Part shown: one piece after another, positions 17,213 to 20,864 of the stretch
Layout: each line of letters starts with the position of its first letter
Numbering within the stretch: the first letter of the stretch is position 1
DNA from: Oceanobacillus indicireducens
Lineage (GTDB): Bacteria > Bacillota > Bacilli > Bacillales > Amphibacillaceae
Assembly: GCF_014647195.1 (NCBI RefSeq)
Contig: NZ_BMOS01000028.1
Coordinates: forward strand, 1 to 42,841
Length of the DNA stretch: 42,841 nucleotides
Direction of reading: 5' to 3'
The notes under the pieces: model-generated
Databases searched by the model: none
The model's input: only the letters and a program-made list of their open reading frames with translations
What the model was told of the DNA's origin: nothing
Made by a program: the position numbers and the translations under genes

Positions 17213-17345
17213 ACAAAAAAGCCTGGGAGAAACTGTGAAAATACAGTATCTCCCAGGCTTTTATCCTTCCGTGGCACAGCAAAGCTGCGAGTTTTCTCTC
17301 GGTCTCAGACCAACAAAGTTGCGGAACCCTAGAAAACATTCAACT
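17213..17345 (-). promoter_or_regulatory. Guanidine-I (ykkC) riboswitch with terminator
   Basis: Read on the minus strand, the leader shows the ykkC-motif blocks in order: CTAGGGTTCCG, GGTCTGAGACCGAGAGAAAA, a variable hairpin, then ACGGAAGGATAAAAGCCTGGGAGA. The 3' block forms one arm of an intrinsic terminator (GCCTGGGAGA...TCTCCCAGGC, plus strand 17221-17258) with a U-tract at 17213-17219. The arrangement predicts guanidinium-dependent antitermination of ykkC-ykkD. Confidence 0.95.
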
Positions 17346-19238: not shown

Positions 19239-19267
19239 TTGAAAAAATAATTTAATTCTGATAAGAT
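19239..19267 (+). promoter_or_regulatory. Sigma-A promoter of the serA leader
   Basis: TTGAAA (19239-19244), a 17-bp spacer and TAAGAT (19262-19267) predict a start near 19274, just before the ZTP aptamer. Confidence 0.75.
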
Positions 19268-19281
19268 AACATCAACAATTG

Positions 19282-19391
19282 AAACGTTATGTGTAACTGG
19301 CGAAACGCGGAGACCACCGCGGGGGAGCACATAATGAAATCATGTCGATCGCCTGGGCAGAGGTAAGGGATTTTTAACTCCTTGCCTTTTT
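19282..19391 (+). promoter_or_regulatory. ZTP (pfl) riboswitch with terminator
   Basis: P1 pairs TTATGTG (19287-19293) with CACATAA (19328-19334). Inside are the conserved AACTGGCGAA, the CGCGG/CCGCG hairpin and GGGGGAGCA. The 3' half has the invariant CGCCTGGGCA (19350-19359). Immediately after it, AGGTAAGGGA / TCCTTGCCT (19361-19387) forms a terminator with a T-run to 19391. ZTP riboswitches bind Z nucleotides that build up when 10-formyl-tetrahydrofolate is low, and typically activate expression. Confidence 0.92.
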
Positions 19392-19412
19392 ATGTTTAAG
19401 GAGGCGACTTGA

Positions 19413-19451
19413 ATGAATAGAATATTCAAAAGCGACGAATGTTATGGGTGA
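19413..19451 (+). CDS. 12-codon leader ORF between the two riboswitches
   Basis: AAGGAGG (19398-19404) sits 8 nt before ATG 19413, the best ribosome binding site in this leader. The frame is MNRIFKSDECYG followed by TGA at 19449-19451. It starts right after the ZTP terminator and its end overlaps the 5' flank of the glycine aptamer. It may be a leader peptide, or the stump of a gene once controlled by the ZTP switch. No biased run of Gly or Ser codons is present, so classic attenuation by amino-acid starvation is not indicated. Confidence 0.4.
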   Translation: MNRIFKSDECYG

Positions 19452-19460
19452 CACTATAAC

Positions 19461-19597
19461 GGGAGCGGCTTCTGGAGAGAATGCATATGCATCGCCGAAG
19501 GGTTCAAAATCTCAGGCAAAAGGACAGAAGAACAACAAAGGTTTATTTGTTGTTTTCTAGATCTTTCTGAGATTGGGGTTTTTTCCAGTCTCTTTTT
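19461..19597 (+). promoter_or_regulatory. Glycine riboswitch (single gcvT-type aptamer) with terminator
   Basis: P1 pairs CTTCTG (19469-19474) with CAGAAG (19525-19530). The conserved core reads GGAGAG, CGCCGAAGGG, then TCTCAGGCAAAAGGACAGA. Only one complete aptamer is visible. Downstream are a 9-bp hairpin (AACAACAAA / TTTGTTGTT, 19531-19554) and a terminator (GAGATTGG / CCAGTCTC, 19569-19592, T-run to 19597). Whether glycine turns serA on or off cannot be decided by eye. Confidence 0.93.
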
Positions 19598-19664
19598 ATG
19601 TTTCTAGGCTGCGTTGTGGAGATTAGAAAGAAAAGTAAGAGTAAAAAGGAGAAAGAGTAGAGAG

Positions 19665-20864
19665 ATGACAACAATAACTTTAGACAAAACAAAAAGAATT
19701 AAAACGTTGAATCATATTGCTGAGGTAGGCCTCGCAATATTTAATGAAGAAGATTACACGATTGATAATGAAGCAAATGATCCGGATGCAATTGTTGTCC
19801 GGAGTTATCCGATGCACAACATGGCATTCGGTGGAAATTTAAAAGCTATCGCACGTGCTGGCGCGGGTGTGAATAATATTCCCGTTGATACTTGTTCCAA
19901 TCAAGGTATTGTTGTATTCAATACTCCTGGGGCAAATGCGAATGCCGTAAAAGAACTCGTGCTTACTTCTATTATGGCATCCTCTCGTAACCTGTTTAAC
20001 GGAGTCGATTGGGTGAAAGATTTAAAAGGCAAAGGGGAAGAAGTACCGCAGCTCGTTGAACAAGGGAAAAAGCAATTTGTCGGACGTGAGGCGAAAGGGA
20101 AGAAGCTAGGCGTCATTGGACTTGGTGCAATTGGAGCGATGGTTGCTAATGATGCACTGAATCTTGATATGGATGTTATTGGGTTTGACCCGTATATTTC
20201 TGTTGATACGGCTTGGGAACTATCCCGGAATATTAAGCGTGCGATGTCTCTTGGAGATGTATTTGAACAGGCGGATTTTATCACAATTCATGTTCCCCTT
20301 ACAAATGAGACAGCAGGTATGCTAAATAGGGAAGCTTTTGAACAGATGAAGCCAGGCGTCCATATTCTGAACTTCTCGCGTGGCGGGCTTGTCGATGAAG
20401 ATGCGCTTGAAGTGGCTCTGGAGAAGGGCCGTGTCGGTAAATACATTACTGATTTCCCTAATGATCGCTTACTTCATATGGAAAATGCGATAACATTACC
20501 CCATCTTGGTGCGTCAACGATTGAATCAGAGGAAAATTGTGCACGAATGGCAACTCGCCAGGTGAGAGATTTCCTAGAGACAGGTAATATTAAAAACGCG
20601 GTGAACTTCCCGAATGCGTTTCTTCCTTATACAGGAAAGCGCCGGGTTACGGTTTTCCATCATAATGTACCGAATATGCTCGGCCAAATTAGTGCGATTA
20701 TTTCTAAAAGGGGCCTAAATATTGCGGCAATGATTAACAAAAGCCGTGGTGACTTGGCATATACGATGATTGATATTGACGAGAAAGTGAACGGGGACGT
20801 CATTCCAGGAATGGAAGCCGAAATTAATACAATCGAGGATGTAATCCGAATTCGCACAATCTAA
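19665..20864 (+). CDS. serA: D-3-phosphoglycerate dehydrogenase with C-terminal ACT domain
   Basis: A 399-residue enzyme that oxidises 3-phosphoglycerate to 3-phosphohydroxypyruvate, the first step of serine synthesis. Seen in order are the 2-hydroxyacid dehydrogenase catalytic lobe, the NAD-binding GLGAIG (152-157), substrate-binding Arg239 in NFSRGG, catalytic His280 in LPHLGAST, and an ACT regulatory domain from about 327. It belongs to the short (about 390-residue) class without the extra intervening domain. ATG 19665 is chosen; AAAGGAG is 13 nt upstream, slightly far, and upstream in-frame codons give an unlikely Arg/Lys-rich extension. Expression should depend on the ZTP and glycine riboswitches in its leader. 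serC and serB are not adjacent. Confidence 0.93.
   Translation: MTTITLDKTKRIKTLNHIAEVGLAIFNEEDYTIDNEANDPDAIVVRSYPMHNMAFGGNLKAIARAGAGVNNIPVDTCSNQGIVVFNTPGANANAVKELVLTSIMASSRNLFNGVDWVKDLKGKGEEVPQLVEQGKKQFVGREAKGKKLGVIGLGAIGAMVANDALNLDMDVIGFDPYISVDTAWELSRNIKRAMSLGDVFEQADFITIHVPLTNETAGMLNREAFEQMKPGVHILNFSRGGLVDEDALEVALEKGRVGKYITDFPNDRLLHMENAITLPHLGASTIESEENCARMATRQVRDFLETGNIKNAVNFPNAFLPYTGKRRVTVFHHNVPNMLGQISAIISKRGLNIAAMINKSRGDLAYTMIDIDEKVNGDVIPGMEAEINTIEDVIRIRTI

What the first reader, a model, noticed from the sequence alone, without database searches (positions are those of the whole stretch)
19282..19664. Stacked ZTP and glycine riboswitches in front of serA
The leader of a phosphoglycerate dehydrogenase gene carries a complete ZTP aptamer with its own terminator, then a complete glycine aptamer with a second terminator, behind one good sigma-A promoter. 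Both aptamers keep their invariant blocks. Two different metabolite switches in series could act as a logic gate: low 10-formyl-folate (high ZTP) would open the first, and glycine status would set the second, matching serine/one-carbon supply to need. I do not recall a described ZTP-glycine tandem on serA, but I cannot search for one.
Basis: partly seen in the sequence, partly recalled or inferred. Interest (0 to 1): 0.82.

Follow-up and report, generated by a model that had tools for sequence, protein, structure and literature searches.

The report
ZTP plus glycine riboswitches before serA
The start of a serine-synthesis gene's message carries two RNA sensors in a row, one that should switch the gene on when one-carbon folate runs low and one that should switch it off when glycine is plentiful; this pairing was already described in 2022, and this is one more, well-conserved example.

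Summary
A complete ZTP aptamer (19283-19365, 64.6 bits, cut-off 39) with a terminator is followed by a glycine singlet aptamer (19462-19537, 50.3 bits, cut-off 32) with its own terminator, behind one promoter-like site and ahead of a serA-type gene starting at 19665. No promoter-like site between them beats shuffled sequence. The kind is not new: PMC9481103 (2022; passages seen) lists five ZTP/glycine tandems in Bacillus and Oceanobacillus before the same gene and predicts ZTP ON, glycine OFF. My folds lean to the same glycine-OFF sign: an aptamer-core strand can pair with the terminator's 5' arm, and that antiterminator fold beats aptamer-plus-terminator in 7 of 8 homologous leaders; the unconstrained minimum holds the antiterminator in only 5 of 8. 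Of 159 genomes of the family, 8 carry ZTP-glycine before serA or serC-serA. They form one clade among ZTP-only leaders, so the glycine switch was probably added once. No ligand was tested. Two relatives of the theme may be unreported: guanine/ZTP on serA (5 genomes) and ZTP/double-glycine before a Na+:alanine symporter (3 genomes).

The parts
19239..19267 (+). promoter-like site TTGAAA-17-TAAGAT
   Evidence: best-scoring site at the matching place in 7 of 8 tandem leaders
19283..19365 (+). ZTP (ZMP-ZTP, pfl) riboswitch aptamer
   Evidence: RF01750, 64.6 bits, cut-off 39
19359..19391 (+). terminator 1 of the ZTP switch, with T run
   Evidence: fold and coordinates; not in the pattern list
19398..19404 (+). 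AAGGAGG, Shine-Dalgarno-like run behind terminator 1, role unknown
   Evidence: a similar purine run at 38-43 nt after CGCCTGGGCA in 11 of 11 tandem leaders
19431..19461 (+). k-turn strand and ghost helix ahead of the glycine aptamer
   Evidence: sub-threshold RF03166 match 19431-19531, 49.7 bits; helix 19440-19461 in the folds
19462..19537 (+). glycine riboswitch aptamer (singlet)
   Evidence: RF00504, 50.3 bits, cut-off 32
19508..19515 (+). AATCTCAG, aptamer-core strand that can serve as 5' side of an antiterminator
19567..19574 (+). CTGAGATT, 3' side of the antiterminator, overlaps the 5' arm of terminator 2
19569..19597 (+). terminator 2 of the glycine switch, with T run
   Evidence: stem formed in 100% of cells over 8 leaders
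19665..20864 (+). serA-type phosphoglycerate dehydrogenase gene, 399 aa
   Evidence: below NCBIfam equivalog cut-offs

Best explanation
The leader is a ZTP/glycine tandem riboswitch of the published A AND NOT B kind. Transcription starts a few bases behind the promoter-like site. Without ZMP/ZTP most polymerases stop at terminator 1; when 10-formyl-THF is short, ZTP binds and lets them pass (class knowledge, not shown here). Polymerases that pass meet the glycine switch: without glycine the strand AATCTCAG pairs with CTGAGATT and keeps terminator 2 from forming, so serA is made; with glycine the aptamer holds that strand, terminator 2 forms and serA is off (sign inferred from competing folds). 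So serA is expressed when one-carbon units are short and glycine is not already abundant. The glycine switch was probably added once, behind an older ZTP switch.
For: Both aptamers pass Rfam cut-offs. The same order ZTP, terminator, glycine, terminator, serA or serC-serA is found in 8 of 159 family genomes; these form one SerA clade (99/91, one change in 98% of 200 bootstrap trees) nested beside ZTP-only rows, and their glycine elements form one clade of 43 (99/99). All 32 family genomes with this SerA (E <= 1e-90) have ZTP upstream of it. With each state enforced, antiterminator is lower than aptamer plus terminator in 7 of 8 leaders (window -50.6 against -46.7 kcal/mol). No promoter signal in the linker above shuffles. 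Glycine elements of the same type stand before amino-acid permease genes in 10 of 28 readable loci, where an OFF switch makes sense. PMC9481103 predicts the same logic.
Against: No ligand test. In L081 the energies go the other way (-52.0 against -53.1), and the unconstrained minimum holds terminator 2 rather than the antiterminator in 3 of 8 leaders, the window among them by 0.3 kcal/mol (L063 by 4.4, L081 by 2.8). Covariation is scarce: 2 compensatory cells, reached by 21 or 29 of 500 shuffles. In a short window fragment terminator 1 and ZTP stem P3 form together, so how ZTP would block it is not plain from that fold.
Confidence: 0.8

Rival explanations
1. Glycine acts as an ON switch here, making ZTP AND glycine, as in gcvT-type glycine riboswitches (recalled).
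For: Unconstrained minimum folds of the window, L063 and L081 keep terminator 2 without ligand.
Against: The antiterminator is built from an aptamer-core strand, so ligand binding should remove it; aptamer plus terminator is less stable than the antiterminator state in 7 of 8. PMC9481103 also predicts OFF.
Confidence: 0.08
2. The two switches are uncoupled: an unseen promoter or RNA cleavage between them gives the glycine switch its own transcript, so serA follows glycine largely without ZTP.
For: A TAGAAT-like box lies ahead of the glycine element in several leaders, the window included.
Against: No linker site beats shuffles in any of 8 leaders; all 8 keep the ZTP aptamer above cut-off although they have diverged.
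Confidence: 0.07
3. One of the two aptamers is a relic and only one ligand matters.
For: serC has left this operon in the window's genome and in G074, so the locus has been rearranged.
Against: Both aptamers and both terminator hairpins are readable in 8 of 8 leaders although SerA identity to the window falls to 68-79 per cent.
Confidence: 0.05

Closest known systems
Tandem ZTP/glycine riboswitches (PMC9481103, RNA Biol 2022; five examples in Bacillus and Oceanobacillus)
   Same: Order ZTP then glycine, same target step (3-phosphoglycerate to serine), predicted A AND NOT B
   Different: Nothing tested sets this one apart; whether it is one of the five is unknown to me. Here the host clade, a single origin and an explicit antiterminator are added.
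Tandem ZTP/THF-I riboswitches (PMC9481103, passages)
   Same: ZTP ON switch followed by an OFF switch, A AND NOT B
   Different: Second ligand is THF, not glycine
Tandem glycine/T box-Ser leaders of serC, serA, serS (PMC9481103, passages)
   Same: Glycine OFF switch on serine genes with a second sensor
   Different: The partner is a T box, and glycine comes first with two aptamers
Singlet glycine riboswitches with a ghost aptamer (PMC9481103, passages)
   Same: One glycine aptamer with an adjacent ghost helix
   Different: Here it sits behind another riboswitch

Membership tests
ZTP riboswitch RF01750 | score above the Rfam gathering cut-off over the full model | tested here: met
   64.6 bits, cut-off 39, model 1-86
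ZTP riboswitch RF01750 | binds ZMP/ZTP and raises expression | not testable with these tools
   class knowledge only
Glycine riboswitch RF00504 | score above the Rfam gathering cut-off over the full model | tested here: met
   50.3 bits, cut-off 32, model 1-94
Glycine-GGAnGA RF03166 | score above the Rfam gathering cut-off | tested here: not met
   49.7 bits, cut-off 110; used only to see the ghost helix
Tandem ZTP/glycine A AND NOT B gate | ZTP then glycine switch, each with its own terminator, before a 3-phosphoglycerate-to-serine gene | tested here: met
Tandem ZTP/glycine A AND NOT B gate | both switches in one transcript | tested here: inconclusive
   no internal promoter signal above shuffles; transcript ends not mapped
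Tandem ZTP/glycine A AND NOT B gate | glycine switch is OFF | tested here: inconclusive
   enforced folds favour it in 7 of 8, unconstrained minima in 5 of 8
Phosphoglycerate dehydrogenase TIGR01327 / PRK11790 | score above the curated equivalog cut-off | tested here: not met
   262 of 454 and 193 of 404 bits; PDB matches and the serC neighbourhood in relatives still point to a PGDH-type enzyme

The most novel reading that the evidence does not exclude
In this family the old ZTP switch on serine-supply genes is a socket into which second sensors have been plugged: glycine behind it (this window), guanine ahead of it on serA (5 genomes, one of them apparently Aquibacillus saliphilus KHM2), and a double glycine aptamer behind it before a Na+:alanine symporter gene (3 genomes). 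Guanine/ZTP, predicted NOT guanine AND ZTP, is not among the combinations in Table 2 of PMC9481103 and would be a new natural two-input gate linking purine sufficiency to serine synthesis.
Probability: 0.5. Interest if true: 0.55.

Novelty: new member of a known kind. Interest (0 to 1): 0.32.

Why it matters
It extends a gate known to me from five predicted published cases to a clade of eight, gives it a likely origin (one addition of a glycine OFF-type switch behind an older ZTP switch) and an explicit antiterminator that a bench test can break. It ties serine synthesis to one-carbon shortage and glycine excess in one RNA. The related guanine/ZTP leaders suggest that cells build new gates by adding a second module to a fixed one.

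Tried and rejected
uORF between the aptamers (19413-19451, 12 codons, behind the AAGGAGG): its start codon is missing in the closest relative L033, and the linkers differ in length and frame. Dropped as a leader peptide; a likeness of its first residues (MNRIF) to the SerC start (MNRVF) is noted but unproven.

Internal promoter: no support. Covariation of the glycine platform: too little variation to decide. Overlap of ZTP stem P3 with terminator 1 in the window: not seen in a shorter fragment, seen in a longer one; left open. Source of the glycine switch: a match to the DUF711 protein whose operon often carries such a switch was not found at E 1e-50 in any of the 8 tandem genomes and was found in both ZTP-only sisters tested, but the element tree puts the tandem elements nearer the permease type at an open fork (84/97), so the source is unsettled. 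Guanine/ZTP beyond the family: not searched, because the match lists are cut.

Reading that I dropped: the 18 loci brought in were read as if on the plus strand; and the places show 10 of them (L178, L181, L182, L187-L191, L194, L195) on the minus strand, so their downstream genes are not counted here.

Full report
What is there. An Rfam scan of the window at gathering cut-offs gives three hits: guanidine-I on the minus strand (17248-17343), ZTP at 19283-19365 and glycine at 19462-19537. Both aptamers in the finding are full length and above their cut-offs. A promoter-like site lies at 19239-19267. Terminator 1 follows the ZTP aptamer at once; terminator 2 lies at 19569-19597. A ghost helix sits ahead of the glycine aptamer. 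The gene starts at 19665.

The gene. The 399-aa product matches D-3-phosphoglycerate dehydrogenases in the PDB (best E 6.3e-42) and the 2-hydroxyacid dehydrogenase Pfam domains. It stays under the curated NCBIfam cut-offs. In 11 of the 32 family genomes that have this SerA, an ORF of serC size or a broken serC lies between the riboswitches and serA; 8 of the 11 are confirmed by a SerC search, one of them (G153) with a stop inside (the other three were not in that search). In the window's genome serC is on another contig, C8, and the genome has no second ZTP aptamer.

Distribution. I searched the 159 held genomes of the family; above 40 genomes that search uses stricter filters that lose some weak matches. 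RF01750 has 66 hits in 53 genomes. The window's SerA has a match at E 1e-90 or better in 32 genomes, and all 32 have a ZTP aptamer upstream of it. All 66 ZTP hits (65 fetched, and the window) were scanned with Rfam. Eleven have glycine aptamers directly behind ZTP: 8 with one aptamer before serA or serC-serA (G000, G068, G074, G075, G081, G152, G153, G154), and 3 with two aptamers (G064, G067, G090) before a 491-492-aa protein; that of G090 is a Na+:alanine symporter by Pfam (PF01235, 518 bits), the other two are plainly alike in sequence. From a named set of 80 loci I scanned 18 (Bacilli and a few others): 12 have ZTP close upstream of serA, none has glycine. One of the 12, L108, has the contig length of G010 and is probably that genome, so 11 lie elsewhere.

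Origin. In a SerA tree of 44 rows (32 family, 12 named) the 8 glycine-tandem rows are one clade, support 99/91, one change in 98 per cent of 200 bootstrap trees, beside ZTP-only rows of the same genus. Their glycine elements also form one clade of 43 elements, 99/99. A covariance model of the glycine element with its platform finds matches in 145 of 397 genomes of the order and 54 of 159 of the family. I read the downstream gene at 28 loci of known strand: 10 amino-acid permeases, 17 ACT/DUF711 operons, 1 unclear (one protein of each kind checked by Pfam); 10 further loci were misread for strand and dropped. Whether ZTP lies beside the elements of the wider order was not checked. So ZTP on serA looks like the older state and the glycine switch like one later addition.

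Mechanism. The strand AATCTCAG (19508-19515) is part of the glycine aptamer core. It is complementary to CTGAGATT (19567-19574), which holds most of the 5' arm of terminator 2. I folded 8 leaders with each state enforced: the antiterminator state is lower than aptamer plus terminator in 7 of 8 (window -50.6 against -46.7 kcal/mol) and higher in L081 (-52.0 against -53.1). Against this, the unconstrained minimum fold holds the antiterminator in 5 of 8 and terminator 2 in 3 (window, L063, L081). On balance this gives antitermination without glycine and termination with it. Seven of the eight antiterminator pairs are formed in at least 7 of 8 rows, the innermost in 3 of 8. Compensatory change is scarce (2 cells, reached in 21 or 29 of 500 shuffles), so the support is complementarity and energy, not covariation. 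The ZTP direction (ON) rests on the class. In the longer fragments the sequence behind the terminator can pair into P3 in several leaders, in line with a strand-displacement read-out; in a shorter window fragment terminator and P3 coexist.

Linker. Upstream of the ZTP aptamer a TTGnAn-17-TAnnAT site with TG is the best in 7 of 8 leaders (in L061 another site scores higher). Between the aptamers the best site is matched by 45 to 169 of 200 shuffles. A Shine-Dalgarno-like run lies 38-43 nt after CGCCTGGGCA in 11 of 11 tandem leaders and 38-50 nt in 22 of 32 serA loci, often without a start codon behind it. I cannot explain it.

Literature. PMC9481103 (passages found by search; [quoted passage not shown] So the finding is a further member of a published kind. 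Searches for the pair listed 11, 3 and 1 papers, of which I opened PMC9481103, PMC2864571 and PMC13273304 by passages only; the last two passages do not name the pair. The 2015 ZTP paper is not held.

Related and possibly new. In 5 of the 32 serA leaders a purine aptamer (71-78 bits, cut-off 37) lies upstream of ZTP on the same strand. The gap from the guanine terminator to the ZTP aptamer is 19, 28, 31, 58 and 86 nt. In the three leaders scored no promoter there beats shuffles (71, 133 and 182 of 200 as high). The C in GACTACG marks guanine specificity (recalled rule). In L038 a 12-bp helix can join the aptamer's 3' strand to the terminator's 5' arm, and in L077 the minimum fold is such an antiterminator, but in 4 of 5 the minimum fold holds the terminator, so the OFF sign is weak. 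G009 keeps what looks like a decayed remnant without an Rfam match. Table 2 of PMC9481103 as shown does not list guanine/ZTP. Two searches listed 9 and 1 papers; of these I opened PMC9481103 and PMC9295807 by passages, and neither names it. A search for ZTP riboswitch, glycine riboswitch and symporter listed none.

Verdict. Observation confirmed, logic-gate reading well supported but untested, kind already published.

Noticed in passing
L038:23-127, L062:3386-3489 (-), L070:46-150, L076:3458-3561 (-), L077:56-160; also L108:2997-3101: Purine (guanine-type) aptamer ahead of the ZTP aptamer on the same strand, before serA, in 5 family genomes. Possible guanine/ZTP gate not in Table 2 of PMC9481103.
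   Followed up: partly
L080:2904-3279 (-), L082:2920-3279 (-), L086:2905-3280 (-): ZTP aptamer followed by two glycine aptamers before a Na+:alanine symporter-type gene in 3 genomes of the window's genus.
   Followed up: partly
window 19398-19404 and the same spot in relatives: Shine-Dalgarno-like purine run 38-43 nt after CGCCTGGGCA in 11 of 11 tandem leaders and 38-50 nt in 22 of 32 serA loci, often with no start codon behind it. Role unknown; mRNA protection or pairing with the ZTP aptamer are guesses.
   Followed up: partly
window 17248-17343 (-): Guanidine-I riboswitch, 72.5 bits, cut-off 63, ahead of two SMR-type transporter genes.
   Followed up: no
L196 (G009), upstream of its ZTP aptamer: Sequence like the 3' half of the guanine aptamer and its platform, without an Rfam purine match: probably a decayed copy.
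   Followed up: partly
L061 and L081 (G152, G075), between terminator 2 and serC: About 615-670 bases between the glycine terminator and the serC ORF, much more than in other tandem leaders.
   Followed up: no
G153:C1:3719560-3720411 (-): serC behind the tandem leader carries a stop inside the match (306-aa open frame).
   Followed up: no
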